Of a stretch of 64,000 nt of DNA, positions 8,445 to 62,762 are shown piece after piece. Every line of letters starts with the position of its first letter. Position 1 is the first letter of the stretch. Below the pieces are notes generated by a model. The model had not been told where the DNA came from. It did no database searches and saw nothing but the letters and a program-made list of their open reading frames with translations. Position numbers and translations under genes: made by a program. The DNA is taken from positions 1 through 64,000 of the forward strand of contig JAUNRC010000004.1 in the NCBI GenBank assembly GCA_030535875.1, written 5' to 3'. Source of the stretch: Akkermansia sp. Lineage in GTDB: Bacteria > Verrucomicrobiota > Verrucomicrobiia > Verrucomicrobiales > Akkermansiaceae.

Positions 8445-9239
8445 ATGGATGTTCCGTATGTACTGAGAGCCGTCTTTGAGATTTTTGTGCTCTGGCTGAT
8501 TTTTTACCAGCTTTACAGAGCATTCAAAGATTCTCGAGCTGCGGCCATTCTGGCCGGCCTCGCGCTCATCATCGGTCTTGCAACAGTACTGCTTGAACTG
8601 ACACACGCAGCCGTGCTACAACAAATTGCAGGCTCTTTCCTCGGACCGGGTACATTGCTGCTCATTCTCTTTATTCTGTTCCACCCGGAATTACGAACAG
8701 CTCTTGCAAAGCTTGGTGCACACCGCGTGCTGGGTAAACTCTGGTCACGCGAACAGAATGAGGACTTCGTCTCCTGTGTGTGTGAATCCGTCTCCTTTTT
8801 GGTCAGCAAGCGCTATGGTGCCCTTATCGCCATCTGCCGCAACAATAAACTTTCAGAGTTCGTAAAAACCGGCACAGAACTCGACGCTCTCTATTCTCGC
8901 GAGCTTATCGGCACCATCTTCATGCCCAAGACCATGCTGCATGACGGAGCTGTTATCATCAATAATGAGCGAATTGTTGCAGCAGCTTGCATTCTTCCCG
9001 TATCAAACAGAGAGTTGAAAGACCGTTCTCTGGGATTGCGTCACCGCGCCGGTATTGGTTTGGCCGAAACATCCGATGCCGTTGTCATCATCGTCTCCGA
9101 AGAAACCGGCACAGTATCTCTGGTAGTCGGTAACGTCGTCCAGCGCGATATTTCGGTACAAATGCTCGGCACTCGCTTGAGTGAATTGATTTACAGCCAT
9201 GTCTCTACTGAACAAAATCCGACATCTTCTCAATCCTGA
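8445..9239 (+). CDS. cdaA: Diadenylate cyclase CdaA (DisA_N domain)
   Basis: A 264-residue inner-membrane enzyme making cyclic di-AMP from two ATP. Three membrane helices (about 7-26, 33-50, 64-80) precede the DisA_N domain, in which the catalytic DGA (167-169) and RHR (199-201) motifs are intact. This is the CdaA/DacA architecture best known from Firmicutes. In those bacteria the partners are CdaR (YbbR) and GlmM; here only a tiny CdaR-like peptide follows, overlapping by 41 bases, and glmM is not adjacent. Confidence 0.9.
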   Translation: MDVPYVLRAVFEIFVLWLIFYQLYRAFKDSRAAAILAGLALIIGLATVLLELTHAAVLQQIAGSFLGPGTLLLILFILFHPELRTALAKLGAHRVLGKLWSREQNEDFVSCVCESVSFLVSKRYGALIAICRNNKLSEFVKTGTELDALYSRELIGTIFMPKTMLHDGAVIINNERIVAAACILPVSNRELKDRSLGLRHRAGIGLAETSDAVVIIVSEETGTVSLVVGNVVQRDISVQMLGTRLSELIYSHVSTEQNPTSSQS

Positions 9240-9396
9240 GAAGCGCAGTTTCAAGTCACGCCTCGTAGAAAACTGGAAGGCTAAGCTGGTATGCCTGATA
9301 TTGGCCATACTGGTCTGGTTGTGGGTAGAAACGCGCTATGTCGAGGGGAGCAGTGAATGGGGGCTTGACGAAATCAGACTTTCCATACCCGAGTAA
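9199..9396 (+). CDS. Miniature CdaR/YbbR-like membrane peptide
   Basis: A 65-residue protein: a basic N-terminus, one membrane helix (about 28-45) preceded by NWKAK and followed by WVETRYVEG, then about 20 residues and a stop. The NW-x-K-L helix ending in W-V-E resembles the N-terminal anchor of YbbR/CdaR proteins, but none of the YbbR repeats are present. It overlaps the cdaA 3' end by 41 bases in another frame, so it is translationally linked to it. Inference: a minimal membrane partner of CdaA, or a decayed remnant. Confidence 0.65.
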   Translation: MSLLNKIRHLLNPEKRSFKSRLVENWKAKLVCLILAILVWLWVETRYVEGSSEWGLDEIRLSIPE

Positions 9397-9409
9397 ACAT
9401 TATTGCACT

Positions 9410-10045
9410 ATGCCCAATTATTTTATAGCCGGTTCGGACTGTGGTGTCGGGAAAACGTTTGTGACCTGCGCGCTGCTCAAAGATTTGCGGGCGCGAGGGC
9501 TCAATGCCATTGCTTACAAACCGGTTGCATGCGGAGAACGCTCTGAGGCGCGCAACATCCGCGAGGCCGTCGAACAACCCACACTCAGTCTGGAACTGAT
9601 TAACCCCGTTTACTTGCGAACACAGGCTGAGCCGGTGATGGCTGCCGAGCTGGAACGAACGAGCATTGAATTGGCGACTCTCGTAACCGGTTACGATAAA
9701 CTTGCCGCACAACATGATATCGTTCTCGTGGAGGGCTGCGGCGGCTGGGAGACCCCTCTTGCTCCCGGTTTAACCATGGCTGATGTAGCCGAGGCCATCG
9801 GCATGCCCGTGATTATCGTTATCAACAATCGCGAGGGGGCTGCCTCTTTGGCAAAATTGACCTTACAGGCCATTAAGGACCGGGGACTTGAGTGCAAGGG
9901 GATTGTTCTCAACCACATAGGCGAGGAATGGAGCACCGCCTCCGTGACGAATGCGCGGGTCATCAGCGAATTGACCGGATTGCCCATACTGGCAGAGCTG
10001 ATTCACGGTCAGGATTATATCGACTCGGAAGAGGTTCTCGGTTAA
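9410..10045 (+). CDS. bioD: ATP-dependent dethiobiotin synthetase
   Basis: A 211-residue P-loop enzyme converting 7,8-diaminopelargonate, CO2 and ATP to dethiobiotin. Motifs: GSDCGVGKT at residues 8-16, KPVACG near 40 (usually KPVxSG) and EGCGGWETPL near 109 (family EGAGGxxxPL). It starts at the ATG at 9410, 13 bases after the mini-CdaR gene, probably in the cdaA transcript. No other biotin gene is in the window. Confidence 0.88.
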   Translation: MPNYFIAGSDCGVGKTFVTCALLKDLRARGLNAIAYKPVACGERSEARNIREAVEQPTLSLELINPVYLRTQAEPVMAAELERTSIELATLVTGYDKLAAQHDIVLVEGCGGWETPLAPGLTMADVAEAIGMPVIIVINNREGAASLAKLTLQAIKDRGLECKGIVLNHIGEEWSTASVTNARVISELTGLPILAELIHGQDYIDSEEVLG

Positions 10046-10046
10046 T

Positions 10047-10086
10047 TATAAAAGCGGAGACTGCTCCGATAGAGCAAATCTCCGCT
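10047..10086 (-). terminator. Terminator of ankyrin gene (convergent with bioD)
   Basis: AGCGGAGA (10053-10060) pairs with TCTCCGCT (10079-10086), and inside it TGCTC pairs with GAGCA. On the minus strand the stem is followed by TTTTATAATT, so it ends the minus-strand ankyrin transcript. Confidence 0.7.
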
Positions 10087-10114
10087 GATGTCAGAATCTG
10101 CACATGCGGTACTC

Positions 10115-10579
10115 TTAACGAGCGCCTGCAGCACGCAATACGGCTTCTGTATCGCGGTGCCCTTCGTGAAGGGCTTTTCGGAGGGCCGTCTCTCCATCCT
10201 CATCCGTTGCATTGATGTCAGCACCGGCTGAAAGCAGCGCCTTCACAACTTCAGTATGACCTTCATCCGCAGCCTTCATAAGCGCGGTTTCGGCATCTTC
10301 ATCACTTTGGTTGACATTGGCACCGGCCGCAATCAGGGTTTTGACGGCATGTAAGTTACCCTTGTCCGCAGCTTTCATCAGAGCAGTCTCGGCATCTTCA
10401 TCCACAGTGTTGATATCTACACCGGAATCCAACACCTTGCGAAGTTGTTCAGGTCCGGCTACGGCTGCTCGATAGACTGATTTCATCGGTGATTGATGAT
10501 TGTCTGCAAAAGCGACGGGGGCACCGAGTGTACATGCCAGCAAAAGGGCTACAAGATATGTTGAGGTTGTGTTTTTCAT
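10115..10579 (-). CDS. Secreted ankyrin-repeat protein
   Basis: A 154-residue protein with a signal peptide (cleavage likely at AFA-D) and three ankyrin repeats so alike that the repeats are visible in the DNA: each has a DEDAETALMKAADKG-like core followed by a helix ending in AGAxxN. The repeat copies are probably recent duplications. Expected location is the periplasm, for protein binding. An upstream Shine-Dalgarno-like AAAGGAG ten bases before the ATG makes it one of the few genes here with a clear ribosome site. Confidence 0.8.
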   Translation of the reverse strand: MKNTTSTYLVALLLACTLGAPVAFADNHQSPMKSVYRAAVAGPEQLRKVLDSGVDINTVDEDAETALMKAADKGNLHAVKTLIAAGANVNQSDEDAETALMKAADEGHTEVVKALLSAGADINATDEDGETALRKALHEGHRDTEAVLRAAGAR

Positions 10580-51393: not shown

Positions 51394-52647
51394 TCAACGA
51401 GACGGTCGCAACACATAGCAAGAGAATGTCATGGCAGCGGCATGCCGCAGCGGCATAGACTTCCTCTCATGACCACTTCCCCAGGAATCCGAATAAATCA
51501 GCGTGGATTTCTCCTCATTATACCCGATAATCAAGCGCATGTGAGAGCCATCGGGCTGAGGGAGCCCCTGCTCAGGAAAAATCCCCAAAGTCACACACCA
51601 GAGCACCGGCACCCCGGCATCGATATTCTTGCGAATAGATGCGAGCCACTTCTTCACATATCGCTTATTACCTCGCGCCAGCAGCAACACCTCCCTATCA
51701 TTCGCAACTTCCGGCCAGTCCATAGGAGTAGCCTGCTGCTTACGTAATTTCTTAGCAGCTTTATTATAATCCGCGATAAAATCATAAATAATATTCGTCT
51801 CATTCTTACCGGTCAGGCAAATAACCTTCATATGGAACTTGCGACTGATGGCCTCGAGCGCAGATTTCATGTCCTGAGTCGAAGTGCCACCATTTGAACT
51901 GTCGCAAAGCTGAGCCAAGGCATGCTGATCTACCCCATCCATGCCATAATATGCAAAAATGCGAGCAGCCGAAGCCGGCACACAATATCCTTTACTACCC
52001 TGATCAACCATCGGAATGCCGTCAATATAAACATCCCCGCTCAACTCATCGATCTTAACATTGCTCTTCAAATCGCGACGATGTGCGGCATCAGCCGAGC
52101 TCCCTTTGCTGATAGAATCCTTGTCAGGACCGAGCTTCAGACGAATGAACTCTCCTTTGAAGTTCTTTCGACTACCTGTATAGGAAGCTTCAAGACGAGC
52201 CACCCCTTTCTCCGTCTCCCATTCCCATGCCTTCAACGCCACAGCACTTTCCCTGCGGGAAATCTTACACACCTTCCCCTTTGTCCCGAATATAGCATTC
52301 AATTCATGCAAGCTATCCTCAAGCAGTTCTTCATAGATATCCTTATCTGCCTCGCCATCATCCCCTTTATTATAAATCATCACCTGAATAGCTGTCAAAA
52401 TCTTCTCATCATCCCAAGTCAACAGCACTTCACCCATTCGCAAATGCCCAATAGTCAATCCTTTATCACTCGGAACCCTGACAGTATTTTCATCAACTCG
52501 CATATATCGCACTCCTGCAAATACCTGCCTATTCACATCAACCGGCTCAGACCATATATCGCCGCTACGGAGCCCATCAACCATATCTCCGGCAAATGTG
52601 GTGGCACATGCTGCACCTAAGCCCATCAAGGTAATCAACTTCTGCAT
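51394..52647 (-). CDS. Secreted C39-like cysteine protease, paralogue 2
   Basis: A 417-residue paralogue of the protein at 26845-28074 with the same layout: signal peptide (cleavage near FAG-D), an N-terminal domain opening with DMVDGLRSGDIWSE, and a papain-like domain with Gln216 (DQG), Cys222 (GYCVPA), His369 (GSHMRLIIGYN) and Asp387 (YSDSWG). It has an extra, Lys-rich insertion at about 293-330. The ATG at 52647 lies six bases after the -10 box, matching the other copy; a start 14 codons upstream would lie within the promoter. Confidence 0.82.
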   Translation of the reverse strand: MQKLITLMGLGAACATTFAGDMVDGLRSGDIWSEPVDVNRQVFAGVRYMRVDENTVRVPSDKGLTIGHLRMGEVLLTWDDEKILTAIQVMIYNKGDDGEADKDIYEELLEDSLHELNAIFGTKGKVCKISRRESAVALKAWEWETEKGVARLEASYTGSRKNFKGEFIRLKLGPDKDSISKGSSADAAHRRDLKSNVKIDELSGDVYIDGIPMVDQGSKGYCVPASAARIFAYYGMDGVDQHALAQLCDSSNGGTSTQDMKSALEAISRKFHMKVICLTGKNETNIIYDFIADYNKAAKKLRKQQATPMDWPEVANDREVLLLARGNKRYVKKWLASIRKNIDAGVPVLWCVTLGIFPEQGLPQPDGSHMRLIIGYNEEKSTLIYSDSWGSGHERKSMPLRHAAAMTFSCYVLRPSR

Positions 52648-52653
52648 GACTTC

Positions 52654-52682
52654 ATCATACAGCAAGCGCCAACCATTGACAA
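52654..52682 (-). promoter_or_regulatory. Promoter of C39-like protease gene 2
   Basis: Minus strand: TTGTCA (52682-52677), 17 bases, TATGAT (52659-52654), six bases to the ATG at 52647. Confidence 0.65.
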
Positions 52683-52700
52683 GCCACAATTTCTGTTCAC

Positions 52701-54635
52701 TTACAAAGCCTGGAACTTGCGGGTCAACTCATTGAGTGAAATAGGCACCATCGTCGGCTTGCCGGCCGGTGTGCAATACGGAATCTCGCAATTAAGCAAC
52801 TCATTCAGCAAGGGTAACGGAGCCTGTAACCACGGGCGCAAATCTTCCCTTGCCGCATACTGTTTGGCCAACTGAAGAGCGTAAGGCTCGAAAGGATTGC
52901 GATTGCGTTTAAGACGCTGCTCACCGGAGGAGAAAGTACGTATAAGTTCATGCAGAAACTCATCCACCCGTGGCAGACTGAGCATCATCGGCACGCCATC
53001 CACCCTCAATGTTCGCTGCCCGAAATGAGAAATCCGGAACCCCGCTTTCTCCAACTGAGAACTGACTTCAAGAGCCACCCCCACATCGCGAGCGTCCAAA
53101 TCCAGCATAACCGACTGCAACAGACGCTGTGAATGCAGCGGCCGCTCATGACTACTGAGCAATCGCTCAAACAAAATGCGCTCCCGTGCGGCACGTGGCG
53201 ACAGAAGTACCAACCCCTCACTGTTTTCAAACAGAAGATAACGCCCGGCACACACACCGATGTAACGGAACTTATTAGCGCGGGAATAAGGCTCAGTCGT
53301 CGGCTCCGTTGCAGCAGCCATCACCTCATCGGTCATCACCGGCTTCAGCGCCGACGTGGGCTGAGGCTCCGCAAAAGGATGAGGCTTAATCTCCTGAACA
53401 GGCTGCTGTTCCGGCAATTTCAACTCCTTCTGCACCGGCTCCAATACGGGTTTCAGTTCCAATATCGGATCAAGAACAGGCAGAATATTCTGAGGCTCCG
53501 TAATAGGGAACGAGGACGGCTCATTCACTACCTCAGGCTTACTCCCCGGCTTAGGCAAAACCGGAGCAACCTTTGCGGGAGCAACCGTGGGCAGCGGCTG
53601 AGTTGGCGATAGAGAATCATCACCCCCTCGGGCGTGCTCCGCCAATGTCGCCGATATCGCATCAATAATCGTCGTTGTGATATCGGACGGCCGCAAAAAT
53701 CTTACCTCTTTCTTTGCCGGATGGACATTAACATCCACCAAAGCCGGTTCTACTTCCAGATAAAGGAACAAGGCCGGATGAAGCCCCGTCGGAAAGCCGC
53801 CGTAACCATCGCGTATAGCACGGGCTACTACTTTATCTTCCACCGGACGGGTATTGAGGAAAACATATTGCATGCGACGGTTGCGGCGCGCCTCCGAAAG
53901 CGGCATCAGATACCCGCTCACATGCACCCCGGGTCCGAGTACGGGCTTAATGCGGAGCAGTCCCGCTGCCAATTCCCTACCGGCGAAATCCGCTATTCTC
54001 TGTCGCAAATCAGACGTTGCCGGCCAATCAAACACCAACTGCCCGTCGCGTACATAAACAAAGCGTAGCTGAGGGTAAGCCAAAGCATGCAGCTTAATTT
54101 CATGCTCTATGTGACCGGCCTCCGTCTCATTACTCTTCAGGAACTTGCGGCGGACAGGTGTATTAAAGAAAAGATTGCTCACGCAAATTTCCGTACCCGG
54201 CGCACAACCGGCACCGGCCGGCGGCATCATTTCCCCACCTCGGCAGCGTATCACCACGCCCTCCACGTCCTGCTCGCGTCGGGTTGTTATCGAAAGTTCG
54301 GCAACAGATGATATGCTGGGAAGAGCTTCGCCGCGGAAGCCGAGTTTCTCAATACAGGACAAATCCTCAAAACTCAGTAATTTACTCGTAGCATGGCGCT
54401 CCAGACACATCAGAGCATCTGCCCGGCTCATACCGCACCCATTATCCGTCACCTTAATGAGCGAGATACCGCCGCGGATAATTTCCACGCGAATCATATC
54501 AGCCCCGGCATCGATGCTGTTCTCCATCAGCTCCTTGACAACAGAGGCCGGACGTTCCACCACTTCACCGGCAGCCACTTGGCTTGCCAGCACATCACTC
54601 ATGCGGTGAATCATCTGTTCGGGGTTTTGTTCCAT
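52701..54635 (-). CDS. mutL: DNA mismatch repair protein MutL
   Basis: A 644-residue GHKL ATPase coupling MutS to downstream repair. The N-terminal domain is complete: VAAGEVVERPASVVKEL, DNGCGM, HATSK, GFRGEAL. A Pro-rich linker (about 340-440) leads to the dimerisation domain. The endonuclease motif normally DQHAxxExxxxE reads SPRAARERILFE, and the C-terminal CPHGRP motif reads CTPAGKP, so nuclease ligands seem lost. The ATG at 54635 is set by the promoter; upstream in-frame codons overlap it. Confidence 0.93.
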   Translation of the reverse strand: MEQNPEQMIHRMSDVLASQVAAGEVVERPASVVKELMENSIDAGADMIRVEIIRGGISLIKVTDNGCGMSRADALMCLERHATSKLLSFEDLSCIEKLGFRGEALPSISSVAELSITTRREQDVEGVVIRCRGGEMMPPAGAGCAPGTEICVSNLFFNTPVRRKFLKSNETEAGHIEHEIKLHALAYPQLRFVYVRDGQLVFDWPATSDLRQRIADFAGRELAAGLLRIKPVLGPGVHVSGYLMPLSEARRNRRMQYVFLNTRPVEDKVVARAIRDGYGGFPTGLHPALFLYLEVEPALVDVNVHPAKKEVRFLRPSDITTTIIDAISATLAEHARGGDDSLSPTQPLPTVAPAKVAPVLPKPGSKPEVVNEPSSFPITEPQNILPVLDPILELKPVLEPVQKELKLPEQQPVQEIKPHPFAEPQPTSALKPVMTDEVMAAATEPTTEPYSRANKFRYIGVCAGRYLLFENSEGLVLLSPRAARERILFERLLSSHERPLHSQRLLQSVMLDLDARDVGVALEVSSQLEKAGFRISHFGQRTLRVDGVPMMLSLPRVDEFLHELIRTFSSGEQRLKRNRNPFEPYALQLAKQYAAREDLRPWLQAPLPLLNELLNCEIPYCTPAGKPTMVPISLNELTRKFQAL

Positions 54636-54649
54636 GTCTGTGCAGGTGC

Positions 54650-54678
54650 ATAGTAGCACGTCTGCCGACTCAGGTCAA
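54650..54678 (-). promoter_or_regulatory. Promoter of mutL
   Basis: Minus strand: TTGACC (54678-54673), 17 bases, TACTAT (54655-54650), 14 bases to the ATG at 54635. Confidence 0.65.
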
Positions 54679-54872: not shown

Positions 54873-56594
54873 ATGAATTGCCAGCTCTATATCTTTGACT
54901 GTCTGACAAGCAAGTTACGCGTGTCGGACGGGGATTTTATGACTATCGGCAAAGGCGGTAAGAACACCTTCAGGGTTATCATGGCTACGGAATCAGCCGG
55001 GGCATTCGCCCAGCGTAACGGCTTCTGTCGTTTTTTTCCGAAAGTCAGCGTTAAGTCCTATTCTCTCAACAGTGCCGAGTTGACAAGCAACAGCTTGATT
55101 AAACCGAATACGCACTACCTTTTCGTGCTGGAGAGCGGATGTTTTATCGCGTGGTACGGAGAAGAAGCCAACCGACCGGACTTCAGCAGCTTCGACCCCC
55201 GCACCTGGTACGTTTACACACCGGAAAACAAGGAATGGAGCTCAGCAAAAGCTCTGCTGGAGCTGCCCCATATCCCACAAGCCCGAATGGACGGAGCTCT
55301 GGCAACGTTTGAAGGACTGGGGCACTATGCTTTCCGTCTGGCCGATGTACTCCGCGTAGCCGAGTTCGTCTCCCGCACCGATGGCGCAGTCCAGCGTGCA
55401 CACACTCAGGGCAATACCCCCAAGGGCAAACATCGTTGTCCCTCCTGCTGGGCTACATTCTTCAAAGAAGAGGCACTCTTCATCGCCACGCACCCCTCCC
55501 TCTGCGGCGATACGAAGCTGGGGCCGGAAGCCATGCAGCGCTTCCTGCCGACCCAGCTCGACGAGCATGGCTTTGCGTCCGACCCTCGCGGCTCGCGCTG
55601 CACCGAGCAGGCCTGCCCCCATTGCCACCACAAATTGCCGCCCTTCTTCTCGCAGATGACCCAGCACATCTTCTCCCTCATCGGTGTGCCGTCATCCGGT
55701 AAGTCCTACTACCTCGCATCGCTCGTCCACGAAATGGAGCGAGCCATGCCCCGCGAGTTCAGCCTGCCGTTTCGAGATGCCGACCCGAACTCCAATGCGC
55801 CGCTCAACGAAATGCGCATGAGAGTGTTCACCGCTAACTCGCCGGAAGATGCCTACCTCGGCAAACAACAGCTCCAGAAGAGCCTGCACCGCCGCGTGTG
55901 GGTCGATGGCAGCTATACCGAAATGCCGCGCCCCTTCATCTACACCCTCAACAGAGGAGCCCGCGCACACTCCATCGTTCTCTATAACAACCCCTCTGAC
56001 AACACCGCCGGTAACTCTTCCAAGTACCTGAAAGTGGCAGATGCCATCTTCTTCCTCTTCGACCCCACATCCAATGTAGCCTTCCGTTCTCTGCTCAAGC
56101 ACATTGATGCCCCCCAACTGCAACAGTGCTACACCCCGCCCGGTCGTCAAAGTCTGCTCCTGTCCGAGACGGAAATGAAACTCCGCACAGCGCTCAACCT
56201 TCCACCGGGGCAAAAAATCACCACCCCGCTTGCCATCATCATCGGCAAGAGCGATTGCTGGAAGAGCCTGTTGGGTCCCGAACCTCTGCTTCCCTGCGTA
56301 CGCAACGGACAACTCAAGCCCGAGAACATCGCCACAAACTCCGCACGTCTCCGCGAACTTCTGTTCCGCGTAAGCCCCAACATCTGTACCAACGCCGAAG
56401 CCGTCTCCGACAAAGTATGTTACTTTGCCGCCTCCTCACTCGGAGCGCCACCCGTAAAGTTCACCGACGAAATGACAGGCGAGACCCACCTGGCTCCCGG
56501 CTCAGCCAACATCCAACCTCTACGCGTGACCGACCCCCTTATCTGGGCTATCAGTTGCCTGGAGCCTTCCCTTTTCCCGGGCACCAACAGTTAA
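54873..56594 (+). CDS. P-loop GTPase with zinc-ribbon insert (DO-GTPase-like conflict-system GTPase)
   Basis: A 573-residue protein. Residues 1-110 form a beta-rich, possibly FHA-like region. Four Cys form a split zinc ribbon: CPSC at 189-192 and CPHC at 248-251, with KLPPFF after it. The GTPase core has Walker A GVPSSGKS at 271-278 and a G4-like GKSD at 458-461; the G3 position reads NNPSDN, unlike a canonical DxxG. This resembles the TRAFAC-type double-GTPase families described by Aravind's group in bacterial conflict systems (recognition by motif, not search). It starts a three-gene unit, 12 bases before the next gene. The ATG at 54873 follows the promoter; an in-frame start at 54792 precedes it. 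Confidence 0.65.
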   Translation: MNCQLYIFDCLTSKLRVSDGDFMTIGKGGKNTFRVIMATESAGAFAQRNGFCRFFPKVSVKSYSLNSAELTSNSLIKPNTHYLFVLESGCFIAWYGEEANRPDFSSFDPRTWYVYTPENKEWSSAKALLELPHIPQARMDGALATFEGLGHYAFRLADVLRVAEFVSRTDGAVQRAHTQGNTPKGKHRCPSCWATFFKEEALFIATHPSLCGDTKLGPEAMQRFLPTQLDEHGFASDPRGSRCTEQACPHCHHKLPPFFSQMTQHIFSLIGVPSSGKSYYLASLVHEMERAMPREFSLPFRDADPNSNAPLNEMRMRVFTANSPEDAYLGKQQLQKSLHRRVWVDGSYTEMPRPFIYTLNRGARAHSIVLYNNPSDNTAGNSSKYLKVADAIFFLFDPTSNVAFRSLLKHIDAPQLQQCYTPPGRQSLLLSETEMKLRTALNLPPGQKITTPLAIIIGKSDCWKSLLGPEPLLPCVRNGQLKPENIATNSARLRELLFRVSPNICTNAEAVSDKVCYFAASSLGAPPVKFTDEMTGETHLAPGSANIQPLRVTDPLIWAISCLEPSLFPGTNS

Positions 56595-56606
56595 TACACT
56601 CATTCC

Positions 56607-59516
56607 ATGTCCTACCAGTTCATCTACACCAGCACCTTGCTACCGGGCTATACTTCTCCGCGCGGAGCCATGATAGCTCGCAGTCATGCCCTGCCTCGAT
56701 TGCTGGCAGATGAACTCGTAACTCTCAGTTCTGCTCAGCCTAGATTCGACCAAAATTCGACAGGCAAAATCTTCAGCTATCGCACTATCGTATGCGGTGG
56801 CAGCACCTTTCATGTGCTGACCTGCCAACAACCCATTCCCTCCTCACAGGCGGGCGCCCCCGCATGGACGGCTCACCACATCGCGCTTACACAAGATGAA
56901 GTTCAAGCGCTGCGCCGCAATGCCTCCCGCCCCACCCCGGCCGGCATTATCATGGCGCTCAGCCATATCAATCTCTGGCGCACTCAGTGGAATGCCGACA
57001 CCATCTACATCGAAGATGAGCCCACGCTGACGGCAGCAGCCCTGCCCGACCCTTCCCTCCAACCCACTTGGAAAAAACTCACCGGCCACAAGAGCAATGC
57101 GCGCGCTTTCTTCTCCGCTCCCTATGACCGCGAATGCGCCGTCGTCATGCCCGACGACAGCAGCACGGAAGATATTCTGATGCTCTGCCATGAGAGCGAC
57201 TGGCTTTCTTCCTCCCGAGGCTGGGGAAAGACCTTCAAGACCAACGCCGTCCTGAAAGATGCCGCCGATGGCCTATCCCGTCTTTTTACCGACCGCGAAA
57301 CAGCTAAACAACTCGCCACCTCGGAAAACAAGATTCCCACCCTGTTCATCTCGGAGCGTCTGGTTCTTGATTCGTCGACAGACGGAGAATCTACCGCTCA
57401 CTCCGGCTCCGGAAGCGACGCGGCACATAACACCGCCCTTTCTTCCTCTTCACGCATACCCTACAAATTTGCAGAAACCGCAGATGAGGACACCTTTAAC
57501 GTCCTGCCGCCTCCCAACAGGATGGTGCGTTGGCTCTGCTGTTTTGCCGGTGTAGGATTGCTCTGGTGCAGCGCATCCGTTATCTCCGGCATGTTCATGG
57601 AAGAGGCCGGAGAACTTACCGGCGATATTATTTCGCGCATCAATGCGGAAGAAGACATCATGCTGCTGGCAGAGCTGGCCTCCTCCCCTTATTCTGCCAA
57701 CACAACGGAAAACAAACTGAACAAACTCGAATCTCACCTCAAGACAAAGCCCGACACCGCCACCCCGGGTAAAAAGGAAGTTCTTCTTCAGGAATGTGTC
57801 AACCTCCTTCGTCACGCACGCAACGACTCCGGCCACCCCGCCAATCTTCACCGATTGAGAGAATGCGCCGTTCAACTCAATCTTGACAGCAACAACATCT
57901 GCCGTCTCTACATGAACGAGGCCATTAACGACCGCGAAACCGATGAATGGATATTCATCACGCCGGAAGAAGACGGGCTCATGTGGCAAAAATTGCTCAA
58001 AGATTGCCCGGAGATGAAGAACTGGTTAACCCAACCTCCCTACTCCGACTACATCACTCCTTTCTTGCAACCTTCCGCAGCGCCCCAATCGGAACAGCCC
58101 TCGCAGGTACAATCCGCTCCCGAACAGCAACCCCAACCGGAGCAGCCTACCCCCGAACCGCCGCCGGCTTCAACATCGGAACCAACGGAAAACGTCCCCA
58201 CCACGGAAAATCTCCCTGCAACAGAACCCGCACCGACAACGGAACCTGTCGTTCCTGAACAACAAACATCGGAACAAATCTCGGCTCTTGCACCAACCCT
58301 TACCGTACAGGGAGCAAGCATTCCGGCACCCCTCATCGACCTCCTGAGCAAAGAGAAAATTACCGTACTCACTGATGGCGAATTCTTCGTTGCCCCCATC
58401 GGCTCAGGTAACGGTGCTTTTCAGCCACTCAAAATTGAATTGAGCAACGAAGGCTACTCTCTGGCTATCGTCCCCGAATCGGAGAATACATGGAAATTAC
58501 AGGTCTGCAAAGGAGGCACTCCTGACCCGATCATCCCCGAAACCCTGCTCCGAACAGACGGTAAAAATCTCACTGAACTGAGTTACGCCGGAGCATCGGC
58601 CGCGGTTCGACTTCATACAGTAGACGGCAAAAATCGCTACAATTCTCACTATCTTTTCAGTCAGTTAGCAATCAATCTGACCCCTGTCAGCACACCTCCC
58701 ATTCCTCCTGTCAAAGATAAAAAACTTTTCACATTAACTCCCGAAAAGCTGAATTGCTCTAAGTCGAGAAGTGTTAAAAATCCGGCAAAAATTACGCTGA
58801 AGAAAAACATCAACTTTACCTCCTTATCCGGAACAGTTGTTGTCAAACTTGATCGCCACTCACAGCTTACTTTGCCGGTATTGGGAGGTCAAAACGACCT
58901 TCATATCGACTCCCCATCATTGCCGAACCATAAGCTCAGCACATCAAAAGCCCAATCCAACCAACCCGGCATCGACAAATGGAATTGGAAATTAGAGCGA
59001 ACTTATGAGTTCGACTCCGTGATTAAAAAGTATATTGACATTGCAGCTAACTCCTACTGCTGCGGCGAGCTTGAAGGGAACGACTTCTATTCATTAGCTA
59101 CACTTTACAGCATTGCTGATGAAAACATTAAAAACGACAATCGCAATGAAATGGCGGAACGGTATTTCAATCTCTTCAAGGACAAAAAGTTTGGCGACAA
59201 ACTTCGACTGAACATTCTGATGAATGATCCGGAGTTTGTCGTGTCGGAAGAAGATATCAATGGCTCCCTTAACGATAAACGCAAAGCTAAGGAGGCTATT
59301 GAAAAAATGCTTCGTAAACCTTCTAAACGACATATAATACGTAAAAAGATTTGCGACATTCTTTCCAACACAGCCGTTCATTACTACGAGCAGGAGTATG
59401 AAAAACAAATGATGCAAGGGCAAACTCCCCTTCTGCTGCAGCTCACTAAAGTCGAAGTCGATGCTGAAAATAACCTTAAATGGTACTTCAGCCTTACCCC
59501 TCAACAGGCGAACTGA
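56607..59516 (+). CDS. GAP1-like GTPase-associated membrane protein
   Basis: A 969-residue protein. Its N-terminus (about 1-260; IYTSTLLPGYTSPRGAMIARS, AWTAHHIALTQDEV) resembles the N-terminal domain of GTPase-associated protein 1 (GAP1), found beside conflict-system GTPases. One membrane helix (about 306-330) follows, then a helical region, a Pro/Glu/Gln-rich linker (about 491-555) and a long C-terminal part of unknown fold. The N-terminal domain would face the cytosolic GTPase and the rest the periplasm. It overlaps the next gene by one base (TGATG). Confidence 0.6.
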   Translation: MSYQFIYTSTLLPGYTSPRGAMIARSHALPRLLADELVTLSSAQPRFDQNSTGKIFSYRTIVCGGSTFHVLTCQQPIPSSQAGAPAWTAHHIALTQDEVQALRRNASRPTPAGIIMALSHINLWRTQWNADTIYIEDEPTLTAAALPDPSLQPTWKKLTGHKSNARAFFSAPYDRECAVVMPDDSSTEDILMLCHESDWLSSSRGWGKTFKTNAVLKDAADGLSRLFTDRETAKQLATSENKIPTLFISERLVLDSSTDGESTAHSGSGSDAAHNTALSSSSRIPYKFAETADEDTFNVLPPPNRMVRWLCCFAGVGLLWCSASVISGMFMEEAGELTGDIISRINAEEDIMLLAELASSPYSANTTENKLNKLESHLKTKPDTATPGKKEVLLQECVNLLRHARNDSGHPANLHRLRECAVQLNLDSNNICRLYMNEAINDRETDEWIFITPEEDGLMWQKLLKDCPEMKNWLTQPPYSDYITPFLQPSAAPQSEQPSQVQSAPEQQPQPEQPTPEPPPASTSEPTENVPTTENLPATEPAPTTEPVVPEQQTSEQISALAPTLTVQGASIPAPLIDLLSKEKITVLTDGEFFVAPIGSGNGAFQPLKIELSNEGYSLAIVPESENTWKLQVCKGGTPDPIIPETLLRTDGKNLTELSYAGASAAVRLHTVDGKNRYNSHYLFSQLAINLTPVSTPPIPPVKDKKLFTLTPEKLNCSKSRSVKNPAKITLKKNINFTSLSGTVVVKLDRHSQLTLPVLGGQNDLHIDSPSLPNHKLSTSKAQSNQPGIDKWNWKLERTYEFDSVIKKYIDIAANSYCCGELEGNDFYSLATLYSIADENIKNDNRNEMAERYFNLFKDKKFGDKLRLNILMNDPEFVVSEEDINGSLNDKRKAKEAIEKMLRKPSKRHIIRKKICDILSNTAVHYYEQEYEKQMMQGQTPLLLQLTKVEVDAENNLKWYFSLTPQQAN

Positions 59517-61660
59517 TGGCGCGCCCTAAAAAACAGAACTGGGAAAGGGAATTACGACGATATGCTCTCGCCGGCAACTTGCGGGCAGCAGAGCGTACAC
59601 TGCGCCATCATTTGGAAACCAACCCGAACGACGAATCGGCTCTCGCCGAACTTCAACGCCTCAAAAACGGTGAGCCTTTACATGCAACCGAAACCACGGC
59701 CCAGCGAAAAGCTCGCGAGGTAACCGAGGCTTGCCAGGCTCTCATGAACATTATGAGAGCATATCCCGAAAATATTTTACCGACCAAAACCACGGCTCGC
59801 ATTCGAGACTTACAGAACCGCATCAAGAGCCACACTCAGGTGCTGAAAGCAGCCAAAGCGGAAGAGATTCCTGCGGTCGCGGCCTATCGCAAACTTCTCG
59901 CTGATGAATTGCGGCGAAGAGGTATCGGTCGCCTACGCCGTTCCTCCCGTTGGATAGCAGCCGGACTTCTGGCGGTAGGCTTAGTCGGAGCTGCCTTCAT
60001 CGTTTGCCAACAGAGAGCCGACAAACTATGCAACGACTTGAACGAAGCCTTAAAAGCCACGCAGATGGAGCGTGTTCAAACCATTCTCAAAGTGGCTGAT
60101 ACCGGGTTTAACCGCGCCCTGTGCTCTGAGCTTGAAGATAGCATACGCAATGCCAACCTCTGGCTCACAACAACCCGGACGCGCCATGAATGGATCGAGA
60201 AACACATCCTCCGCGTAGAGAGCGGAGCAACCTCCGTCTCGGGCATGCGAATGTCATTACGAGCTGAGATTGAAAGAGAGCTTCAAGCCATGCCCACAGA
60301 TTGCCCCGGTCTTGAAGAACGCTGGTTGCGGCTGTGCAATCGAGAAAAAGCCCAACTGGAATACCAAAAAGCCACAATAACCGAAGCTCTACTCAGCCCG
60401 CTGCCGGATGTTCCCGCCTTCACCGGAGAACCGGAAACAGATGCCGCAGCCCTTGCAGAACAGCTTAAACTGATAGAACAGCGCCAAACCCTCTTTGACG
60501 ATACTCCGAAGAGCTATGCATTGTCCGAAGACCTATTAAGTCTCACCAATAAGCGACGTGATTACATAACATCCTGCATGAAAGAAATTGCCGGATATCG
60601 TCGACTTGTCGAAAAGTTTGCGAAGATTCGCACCTATCAGCACCACCGCAAACTATTAGAAGAATATACCCCCGTTCACTATACCCCGGCGGTACAGCTC
60701 ATGCACATCCGCACCAAGCTGCCACAGGTAGAGAACGTAAAAAGCCTGATTCAAGACCCCCAGCGCAAGATTGATGACAATGAAATGAAAGCAGCCATTG
60801 TCACCTTACTGGACGGCGGACCCACGTTCACACAGGCATACCCGGCCAATCGTCGGCAGGTTCACCTGATGGAAGACCTCTTTACCGCACCGTCCCTACA
60901 CCGCCAATTACTTGAGCTGAGCAATGAAAAAGGTACAATTTGCTATACAGAAGAAGAGCCGCGCATTGACCATATTCGCCGGGTGCATTTCCGCCGTTCT
61001 GACTTAGACCCTAACGTTACGGCCCAAAATAAAGATGTGTGCTGGGATGATGCCTCATCCGTCTGGAAAATCACAATCGATGCCACACCTCTTGTAAGTA
61101 CAGCTCGGTTAGATAAGCCCACATTCTTCAGCGAACGTCAACTTCCCGAATTGCTTACTGCCGTCCTGAATTTTGAAAGACGTCAGTGCCCGGCACTTGC
61201 ACAGGCCTGCGTCTACCACAAATTGCTCAAACTCATCAAGGAGCACGACCATCCCCTCCTCACGGGCATTAACCACAGTCCCACACTCCGCAAGCACCTC
61301 AGCAGCTTTGAACAACTGGTCAGCAGCACCGGCATAGAGCTCCGTCCCGGTTGCTGGCTGGGCAAAACTCAGGCACAAATCAACGCAGAAATAGCGTTTA
61401 AACGCTGGTTTGATCAAAATCGCGGAGCAGATTACTGCCGGGAAATCAAGCAGAACTTCGGAGCTCTGGTTCGTGTGGGAGCCGCCTATTGCGGTTACGT
61501 CAACGAAAAAGGACAAGCCGCTATCTTCCGCGAGCTCCCGGCAGGAACAACAATTTGGTACATGACAGTCGAAGGCATAGTTGCCGGCCAAACCGGTTCA
61601 GAATTGGAGGCCCCGACCATCTTCTCTCCCATCTTCACCGCCGAGAAACAACGCCATTAG
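59516..61660 (+). CDS. Third cassette protein: TPR-like, single-span, unknown
   Basis: A 714-residue protein. Residues 1-60 look like tetratricopeptide helices (RRYALAGNLRAAERTLRHHL), a helical cytosolic part follows, then a membrane helix at about 146-165 and a long, mostly helical extracytoplasmic region ending in a beta-rich segment. No family recognised. The one-base overlap with the GAP1-like gene (TGATG) means coupled translation, so the three products probably form one membrane-spanning assembly. Confidence 0.6.
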   Translation: MARPKKQNWERELRRYALAGNLRAAERTLRHHLETNPNDESALAELQRLKNGEPLHATETTAQRKAREVTEACQALMNIMRAYPENILPTKTTARIRDLQNRIKSHTQVLKAAKAEEIPAVAAYRKLLADELRRRGIGRLRRSSRWIAAGLLAVGLVGAAFIVCQQRADKLCNDLNEALKATQMERVQTILKVADTGFNRALCSELEDSIRNANLWLTTTRTRHEWIEKHILRVESGATSVSGMRMSLRAEIERELQAMPTDCPGLEERWLRLCNREKAQLEYQKATITEALLSPLPDVPAFTGEPETDAAALAEQLKLIEQRQTLFDDTPKSYALSEDLLSLTNKRRDYITSCMKEIAGYRRLVEKFAKIRTYQHHRKLLEEYTPVHYTPAVQLMHIRTKLPQVENVKSLIQDPQRKIDDNEMKAAIVTLLDGGPTFTQAYPANRRQVHLMEDLFTAPSLHRQLLELSNEKGTICYTEEEPRIDHIRRVHFRRSDLDPNVTAQNKDVCWDDASSVWKITIDATPLVSTARLDKPTFFSERQLPELLTAVLNFERRQCPALAQACVYHKLLKLIKEHDHPLLTGINHSPTLRKHLSSFEQLVSSTGIELRPGCWLGKTQAQINAEIAFKRWFDQNRGADYCREIKQNFGALVRVGAAYCGYVNEKGQAAIFRELPAGTTIWYMTVEGIVAGQTGSELEAPTIFSPIFTAEKQRH

Positions 61661-61668
61661 CCTTAAAT

Positions 61669-62160
61669 ATGCTGGTAGCCATCCTCTCAGATGTCCATGA
61701 CAACACTACCAATCTGCTTGCAGCGCTGGCAGAAGCAGAGGAACAAGGGTGCCGTCACCTCCTGTTCACCGGAGATATGACCATGTTGAGCACCTTCCGA
61801 ACCTTGCGTGAAGAATGGCAATATGGTATGGATTTAGTCTTCGGTAATAACGAGTTTAACCGAGGAGATTTCTTCCGACTGGCCGAACTCATGCCCGACA
61901 CACGGCTGCACGGCGACGAGGCGGACATCACACTTGCCGACCGCAGGATATACTTGAGCCACTACCCGCACCTTGCTGCACAGGCTCTCAACAGCGGACA
62001 GTACGATGCCGTCTTTTACGGCCACACTCACACAGCCCATCGACAGCTTGTCGGCAGAACCCTACTCGCCAATCCGGGTGAAATCTGCGGCGTGCGCTCA
62101 AAACCAAGCTATGCGGTGTACAATACCGACGACAACTCCCTTCATCACTACACTCTCTGA
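61669..62160 (+). CDS. YfcE/MJ0936-type metallophosphoesterase
   Basis: A 163-residue calcineurin-like phosphodiesterase with the full metal set: SDVHDN near residue 7, TGDM near 34, GNNE near 59 (usually GNCD), SHYPH near 99 and YGHTHTAH near 119. Members hydrolyse phosphodiesters in vitro; the physiological substrate is unknown. The next gene starts in its stop codon (TGATG). Confidence 0.87.
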   Translation: MLVAILSDVHDNTTNLLAALAEAEEQGCRHLLFTGDMTMLSTFRTLREEWQYGMDLVFGNNEFNRGDFFRLAELMPDTRLHGDEADITLADRRIYLSHYPHLAAQALNSGQYDAVFYGHTHTAHRQLVGRTLLANPGEICGVRSKPSYAVYNTDDNSLHHYTL

Positions 62161-62762
62161 TGGACTTTCTCTGTTACAGATTCAGCGAACTGACTGTCGA
62201 TAGTGGTGACAAAGCCCTATTAAGCCCACTTGAGCTCGCGCAATCCGCCCGCAGAGGGCACCATTACCTTCTCTCTCGTGTCACGCTCAAAAAAGAACTG
62301 GCACGTCGCCTTGGTTGTACGGCTCAGGATATTCACTTCGTGCGCAACGAGCACGGCAAGCCGGGTTTGCCCGGTTCCGCCATTCATTTTAACATGAGTC
62401 ACTCTGAGGACATCCTCTGTCTGGCATTCCACCGGGCCCCCATCGGAGTGGATATCCAACAGCACCGCCCCTCATCTGCCTCAAGTGCTCTGGCAAAAAG
62501 AATAATGTGTCGGCAACAACTGGCAGCATGGGAACAGAGGTCGTGCCCGACCAAGGAGTTTTTCGACTGCTGGTGCGTGGCAGAAGCGCTGGTCAAACAT
62601 GCCGGCACCACCATCTGGCAAGCAACGAAATACCCCTTCCTCTACCACCCCAATGGCATAGAAGCGCTCTTTGAGACATCTTCCGCCATTCAACTTTTCT
62701 CCCCCTCAGCAGGATTCAGCGGAGCCGTCGTCTACACCGAGCTCCCGTCGGCTCATCAATAA
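62160..62762 (+). CDS. 4'-phosphopantetheinyl transferase (Sfp type)
   Basis: A 200-residue transferase that loads phosphopantetheine onto carrier proteins. The Mg-binding GVDIQQHR near 95 is intact; the second motif reads FDCWCVAEALVK where family members have W-x-x-K-E-A, so the catalytic Glu is kept but the preceding Lys is Ala. Only the Sfp class of this enzyme is visible in the window. One-base overlap with the phosphoesterase gene. Confidence 0.82.
   Translation: MDFLCYRFSELTVDSGDKALLSPLELAQSARRGHHYLLSRVTLKKELARRLGCTAQDIHFVRNEHGKPGLPGSAIHFNMSHSEDILCLAFHRAPIGVDIQQHRPSSASSALAKRIMCRQQLAAWEQRSCPTKEFFDCWCVAEALVKHAGTTIWQATKYPFLYHPNGIEALFETSSAIQLFSPSAGFSGAVVYTELPSAHQ

What the first reader, a model, noticed from the sequence alone, without database searches (positions are those of the whole stretch)
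54873..61660. Three-gene membrane GTPase / GAP1-like cassette
A GTPase with a split zinc ribbon and a non-canonical G3 (NNPSDN), a 969-residue protein with a GAP1-like N-terminus and one membrane helix, and a 714-residue TPR-like single-span protein lie in one tightly coupled unit (12-base gap, then TGATG). Family knowledge links GAP1 and double-GTPases to predicted NTP-dependent conflict systems. Here the cassette lacks the vWA or kinase partners I would expect and has large periplasmic portions, suggesting a trans-envelope device, either defence or envelope maintenance.
Basis: partly seen in the sequence, partly recalled or inferred. Interest (0 to 1): 0.8.

Follow-up and report, generated by a model that had tools for sequence, protein, structure and literature searches.

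The report
Motor-less remnant of GTPase envelope machine
In gut Akkermansia, three linked genes make a membrane-spanning GTPase device that descends from a larger, phylum-wide gene set in which the same proteins sit beside a proton-channel motor; the Akkermansia version has no motor genes beside it and its GTPase switch has repeatedly decayed.

Summary
A GTPase (54873-56594), a 969-aa single-span protein (56607-59516) and a 714-aa single-span protein (59516-61660) form one unit, continuing into a phosphoesterase and a phosphopantetheinyl transferase. The genome is an Akkermansia MAG. The genes stay together across Verrucomicrobiota. New here: outside Akkermansia the same operon usually continues into a MotA/TolQ/ExbB-type channel, two TolR/MotB-like single-span proteins and a variable GYF-linked component (channel in 20 of 25 loci; 11 of 20 in a second sample). 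It was next to none of 39 Akkermansia loci, where the glutamate was lost at least five times. Also new: the GAP1-N2 domain model has longin topology; its best structural matches are longin/DENN regulators of small GTPases plus TagF, at borderline scores. Most likely a motor-less derivative of a GTPase-gated, proton-driven trans-envelope machine, now a GTP-binding envelope tether or sensor. Defence is possible but unsupported by context.

The parts
54873..56594 (+). GTPase, 573 aa: FHA-like domain (res 1-100), GYF-like stretch (101-170), split zinc ribbon, P-loop GTPase
   Evidence: DO-GTPase2 in 18/20 relatives; FHA in 5/45 relatives, best 1.6e-6, GYF_2 weak 0.058
55437..55448 (+). first half of split zinc ribbon, CPSC (res 189-192)
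   Evidence: C189 and C192 invariant
55614..55625 (+). second half of split zinc ribbon, CPHC (res 248-251)
   Evidence: C248 and C251 invariant
55683..55706 (+). P-loop GVPSSGKS (res 271-278)
   Evidence: G271, G276 and K277 invariant
55986..56003 (+). degenerate G3, NNPSDN (res 372-377); relatives have DNAGE
   Evidence: at least 5 independent changes in the Akkermansia clade
56244..56255 (+). G4-like GKSD (res 458-461)
   Evidence: K459 and D461 invariant
56607..59516 (+). GAP1-N2-type protein, 969 aa, single span
   Evidence: relatives match PF20013, best 2.7e-22
56607..57356 (+). N domain (res 1-250), predicted longin-like module followed by an alpha/beta part
   Evidence: AF2 model, pLDDT mostly about 90 or more; VIA matches to longin/DENN proteins Z 7-8
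57534..57590 (+). membrane span (res 310-328), predicted N-in/C-out
   Evidence: hydropathy, helix 305-330
58077..58292 (+). Pro/Glu/Thr-rich disordered linker (res 491-562)
   Evidence: sequence; low pLDDT
58293..59513 (+). periplasmic beta-rich and helical C-terminal part; the beta-rich half is the fastest-evolving region
   Evidence: beta-rich part 25% identical to the nearest relatives; absent in short relatives
59516..61660 (+). third protein, 714 aa: TPR-like N-terminus, one span, periplasmic helical coil, two small beta-barrel domains
   Evidence: AF2 pLDDT 91
59951..60007 (+). membrane span of third protein (res 146-164)
   Evidence: hydropathy, helix 119-181
60902..61090 (+). YgdI/YgdR-like (DUF903) SH3-like domain (res 463-525)
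   Evidence: Foldseek prob up to 1.00 but E 0.35-1; VIA Z 6.1-6.7, rmsd 2.1-2.8 over about 50 residues
61478..61651 (+). second small beta-barrel (res 655-712), near the best-conserved end of the family
   Evidence: invariant G660 and near-invariant P705
61669..62160 (+). calcineurin-like metallophosphoesterase, coupled to the cassette but also a genus-core gene
   Evidence: Metallophos_2 2.3e-27; found in 71/76 genus genomes
62160..62762 (+). 4'-phosphopantetheinyl transferase-family gene
   Evidence: ACPS 4.6e-9; adjacent in 35/39 Akkermansia loci

Best explanation
The cassette is a motor-less derivative of an operon spread across Verrucomicrobiota. In the full operon a cytosolic GTPase (FHA-like, GYF-like, zinc ribbon, GTPase) is paired with the N-terminal GAP1-N2 domain of a single-span protein, which probably has a longin-like fold and regulates the GTPase. 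That protein and a second single-span protein reach into the periplasm, the second carrying small SH3-like domains that probably hold the wall or outer envelope. Next to them are a MotA/TolQ/ExbB-type channel and two TolR/MotB-like proteins that would supply force, plus a variable GYF-linked protein. Shown: the genes, their linkage, the domains by homology, the absence of the channel genes beside Akkermansia cassettes, and the repeated loss of the G3 glutamate. Inferred: that the GAP1-N2 domain acts on the GTPase, that the channel is an energiser, and that the Akkermansia form works as a GTP-binding tether or sensor between inner membrane and periplasm with little or no regulated hydrolysis.
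For: Homology by profiles, with Akkermansia members over the GAP1-N2 cut-off (48 and 42 bits, cut-off 24). Gene order kept in 80 loci. Channel gene in 20/25 non-Akkermansia and 0/39 Akkermansia loci; in 195 genomes of the family, operon-type scores (E about 1e-135) occur only in G091, G099 and G101, which also carry the cassette. In a second sample drawn by GAP1-N2, 11/20 loci carry the channel and both small proteins in the same neighbourhood, and L228 keeps the linkage with the order permuted. Channel named by Pfam. G3 glutamate kept in all 37 rows of the other clade, lost in 16 of 44. GTPase lost or reduced while the third protein stays in six genomes. Topology, longin arrangement and SH3-like domain from models.
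Against: Longin matches have Z 7-8, the range the tool warns can be chance; the matching proteins are related to each other, so their agreement is not many independent hits. TolR/MotB likeness of the two small proteins rests on topology and a TM-side aspartate that is not fully kept; Pfam names neither. A channel encoded elsewhere could still serve Akkermansia. All G3 losses lie in one clade, so a link to motor loss cannot be tested. The own genome is 88% complete.
Confidence: 0.5

Rival explanations
1. It is a conflict (anti-phage or anti-competitor) system: the fast-evolving periplasmic part of the GAP1 protein senses an attacker, the GTPase sets a threshold, and the response is delivered at the membrane.
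For: Kaur et al. 2020 (PMC7159879) predict this for GAP1-N2 systems. The periplasmic beta-rich part is the most divergent region (25% against 53-80% for the GTPase domains). Outside Akkermansia a variable GYF-linked component occurs (DUF4190, PrsW protease), and the channel weakly resembles ZorA of Zorya.
Against: No PADLOC hit for GTPase or third protein and only AbiEii at 0.03 for the GAP1 protein. No enzymatic effector in the cassette. Flanks are MutL, an RND pump and a phosphopantetheinyl transferase. Present in most species of one part of the genus, mostly at a kept site.
Confidence: 0.25
2. It is a relic: the system lost its motor and is decaying neutrally in Akkermansia.
For: Repeated loss of the G3 glutamate, shortened GAP1 proteins, an 83-aa GTPase remnant beside the third gene in G225, genomes with only part of the cassette.
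Against: Long open frames kept in most of 76 species at about 45-75% GTPase identity; P-loop, G4 and zinc ligands intact in nearly all rows; high-confidence folds from the alignments.
Confidence: 0.15
3. The motor was not lost in function: the Akkermansia cassette uses a general ExbB/TolQ unit encoded elsewhere in the genome.
For: Weak ExbB-type match in one Akkermansia genome (G136, 6e-19); the membrane components are kept.
Against: No match to the operon-type channel in the own genome or, at operon-type scores, in any sampled Akkermansia genome.
Confidence: 0.1

Closest known systems
[quoted passage not shown] 2020, eLife 9:e52696; PF20013, PF20014, PF19993)
   Same: GTPase with N-terminal zinc ribbon directly upstream of GAP1; GAP1 with a membrane span; reported in Verrucomicrobiae; GYF-containing partners reported in Planctomycetes
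   Different: No FNIII, tubulin, HSP70, kinase or vWA partner found in the cassette; third partner is a TPR-like single-span protein with SH3-like domains; relatives carry a MotA/TolQ/ExbB channel, words absent from that paper's main text; window GTPase lacks the Walker B glutamate
Zorya (ZorA/ZorB), Tol-Pal and Ton energisers
   Same: The relatives' channel belongs to the MotA/TolQ/ExbB family and hits ZorA models weakly (7.8e-6 and 2.4e-6); two small single-span proteins follow it
   Different: No ZorB, ZorC or ZorD hit; joined to a GTPase and GAP1-N2; none of it next to the window cassette
Longin/DENN regulators of small GTPases (FLCN-FNIP2, GATOR1 NPRL2/3, C9orf72-SMCR8, DENND10, Lst4)
   Same: Same order of strands and helices in the N domain; Z 7.1-8.0 over 117-120 residues, DENND10 over 217
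   Different: 8-9% identity, borderline scores; bacterial; partner is a TRAFAC GTPase with a zinc ribbon; no activity shown
TagF, repressor of type VI secretion
   Same: Model aligns over 214 residues, Z 7.0; TagF binds the FHA-domain protein Fha (PMC5995506), and the window GTPase starts with an FHA-like domain
   Different: No sequence link found: the TagF_N search rang nowhere, controls included; no type VI genes seen near the cassette

Membership tests
GAP1-N2-type GTPase-centric system | GAP1-N2 domain in the protein encoded next to the GTPase | tested here: met
   Through relatives: 30/40 N-domains match PF20013, best 2.7e-22; Akkermansia relative at 48 bits, cut-off 24. The window protein itself gives no Pfam hit.
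GAP1-N2-type GTPase-centric system | TRAFAC-type DO-GTPase | tested here: met
   Through relatives: DO-GTPase2 in 18/20, best 2.2e-6. Window protein 17.1 bits to DO-GTPase1, cut-off 27, so below cut-off itself.
GAP1-N2-type GTPase-centric system | Conserved glutamate in the Walker B motif | tested here: not met
   NNPSDN in the window; glutamate kept in 65 of 81 rows. The window copy is therefore called a derived variant, not a typical member.
GAP1-N2-type GTPase-centric system | FNIII-repeat component | tested here: not met
   Third protein has no FNIII match in Pfam and a helical plus SH3-like model.
GAP1-N2-type GTPase-centric system | GAP1-M and GAP1-C domains after GAP1-N | tested here: inconclusive
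   GAP1-M in 3/40 relatives, best 5.1e-8; none in the own genome at E 0.001. GAP1-C not tested on its own.
Zorya defence system | ZorA, ZorB, ZorC and ZorD set | tested here: not met
   No Zorya hit in the window; only ZorA-type hits in relatives' channel gene.
Longin/DENN domain proteins | Longin fold in the N domain | tested here: inconclusive
   Strand and helix order fits and leading matches agree, but Z 7-8 is in the tool's caution range and no sequence link was found.
FHA domain | FHA fold in the GTPase N-terminus | tested here: met
   Through relatives only: FHA 1.6e-6 and Yop-YscD_cpl 2e-6, five members each of 45. The usual phosphothreonine-binding residues were not seen in the alignment, so binding is not implied.

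The most novel reading that the evidence does not exclude
GAP1-N2 is a bacterial longin/DENN-like regulator of a TRAFAC GTPase, and together they gate a proton-driven trans-envelope motor across Verrucomicrobiota, a GTPase-controlled counterpart of Tol/Ton/Zorya machines. Akkermansia keeps a motor-less form in which the switch has been turned into a nucleotide-binding tether.
Probability: 0.3. Interest if true: 0.85.

Novelty: new variant of a known kind. Interest (0 to 1): 0.62.

Why it matters
GAP1-N2/double-GTPase systems have been predicted from sequence, and the one paper found on them here (Kaur et al. 2020) is computational. A kept link to a proton-channel unit gives a concrete, testable mechanism: a GTPase switch controlling force or ion flow across the envelope. 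If the GAP1-N2 domain is longin/DENN-like, a regulator fold best known from eukaryotic membrane traffic and nutrient signalling has a bacterial branch working on a different GTPase class. Akkermansia, a gut genus with isolates, offers a natural experiment in which the motor genes are gone and the switch decays.

Tried and rejected
Direct Pfam, PADLOC and NCBIfam scans of the three window proteins gave nothing above cut-off; relatives were needed. Foldseek of both models found no match at E 0.001. Profile searches of solved structures gave no clear relative for the GTPase, the GAP1 protein or the GTPase N-terminus, though three of five weak hits for the N-terminus are FHA domains by my own knowledge of those entries. 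TagF_N searched in 145 genomes rang nowhere, not even in controls, so it shows nothing. A link between motor loss and G3 loss could not be tested: no independent pairs differ. Phosphoesterase as the effector of the system: set aside, because it is a core gene of the genus also where the cassette is absent. Kinase next to the third protein's paralogue: seen in two genomes only, not followed. The 14-3-3-like and nuclear-pore helical matches for the third protein were read as common helical arrangements.

Full report
Check of the observation. The unit goes on: a metallophosphoesterase starts 8 bases after the third gene and overlaps by one base an ACPS-family phosphopantetheinyl transferase. The genome is an Akkermansia: its closest relatives among named genomes are Akkermansia MAGs, mostly from ruminant, horse and rabbit gut. 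The GTPase is in 52 of 76 genomes of the genus, the third protein in 55, the GAP1-like protein in 57 (a few of these by its C-terminal part only), the phosphoesterase in 71. The larger-genome members, about 2.6-3.5 Mb and probably near A. muciniphila, mostly lack the cassette.

What the proteins are. None of the three window proteins reaches a Pfam cut-off. Their relatives do the work. DO-GTPase2 is hit by 18 of 20 GTPases (best 2.2e-6; below the curated cut-off in the members whose scores were printed), and GAP1-N2 by 30 of 40 N-domains (best 2.7e-22), among them Akkermansia relatives over the cut-off. The GTPase carries an FHA-like N-terminus, a GYF-like stretch (weak), and a zinc ribbon whose two halves lie 55 residues apart. 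P-loop and GKxD are kept almost throughout; the G3 motif is not.

G3 erosion. Outside the Akkermansia cassette clade, every one of 37 rows reads YDNAGEHF at G3, including second copies in Akkermansia (L148, L152, L154). Inside the clade 16 of 44 rows have lost the glutamate, with at least five changes on the tree. The window sequence is NNPSDN; its nearest relatives have NGNTGS and QHTEGD.

The full operon. In 80 loci from genome contigs, GAP1 follows the GTPase in 44/46 Akkermansia and 30/32 other loci, and the third gene is present in 38/42 and 26/28. In other Verrucomicrobiota the operon continues with a GYF-like variable protein (with DUF4190, a PrsW protease, or other parts), a MotA/TolQ/ExbB channel gene (Pfam 2e-5 to 7.5e-12), and two single-span coiled-coil proteins with an N-terminal span next to FQDI or LLDT. 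The channel gene is within 10 kb in 20/25 such loci and in 0/39 Akkermansia loci. A search of 195 genomes of the family finds the operon-type channel only in three genomes outside Akkermansia, which also have the cassette. A second sample taken by GAP1-N2 from the phylum gives channel plus both small proteins in 11 of 20 loci; in L228 they lie in front of the GTPase, on the same strand. Kaur et al. 2020 do not use the words MotA, ExbB or TolQ in their main text. Both samples take the best-scoring loci, so these fractions are not phylum-wide frequencies.

Structures. The third protein models well (pLDDT 91): TPR-like start, one long membrane-spanning helix, periplasmic helices, a YgdI/YgdR-like SH3 domain at 463-525 and a second small barrel at the end. 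The GAP1 protein (pLDDT 85) has an N domain with strands and helices in longin order, a span, a helical part, a disordered Pro/Glu linker, and a beta-rich end. VIA-align's leading rows for the N domain are longin or longin-DENN proteins, many of them from complexes that regulate Rag, Arf or Rab GTPases, with TagF beside them. Z is 7-8, which the tool says may be chance; I take the agreement in topology as moderate evidence. Kaur et al. do not mention longin or DENN.

Variation. Between the window and three near relatives the GTPase domains are 53-80% identical, the GAP1 N domain 38-58%, the periplasmic beta-rich part 25%. Some GAP1 proteins end near residue 300-500. Six genomes keep the third gene without the GTPase, three the reverse; G225 has an 83-aa GTPase remnant beside it.

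Reading. The evidence fits a GTPase-controlled envelope machine that in Akkermansia has no motor genes beside it. What the remaining proteins do is open: a tether or sensor is the simplest use of two single-span proteins with periplasmic domains and a GTPase that still has its nucleotide-binding motifs. Defence is the published prediction for the wider class and is not excluded, but nothing in the surroundings points to it.

Noticed in passing
L194:5726-8419 (-) and 8515-10551 (-), own genome contig C10: A paralogue of the third protein (898 aa, E 1.2e-53) lies next to a Ser/Thr protein kinase with a zinc-ribbon-like start; the pair is also in G216.
   Followed up: partly
L091 (G002), L096 and L097 (G181, G177), L200 (G225), L202 (G224): Akkermansia genomes keep GAP1-like and third genes without the GTPase, or the third gene alone next to the phosphoesterase; in G225 a short GTPase remnant sits beside it.
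   Followed up: partly
L152:9045-10046, L154:16805-19048: Second, canonical copies of the cassette in Akkermansia are followed by repeat proteins, in L154 with Sel1 and ankyrin repeats.
   Followed up: no
L180:17799-19316, L156:10400-12037, L149:17213-17842: The GYF-like gene before the channel ends in different parts: a PrsW intramembrane protease, a transglutaminase-like stretch (by eye), or DUF4190.
   Followed up: partly
L158:14249-16231, L159:14357-16339: An extra 661-aa gene that clusters with GAP1 is inserted between GAP1 and the third gene.
   Followed up: no
window 51394-52689 (-): C39-type peptidase gene downstream of mutL (52701-54659); a relative lies about 9 kb beyond the cassette in L048; no sign of a link to it.
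   Followed up: no
window 61669-62762: Phosphoesterase and phosphopantetheinyl transferase stay with the cassette in 35 of 39 Akkermansia loci, though the phosphoesterase is a core gene with other neighbours in cassette-free species.
   Followed up: partly
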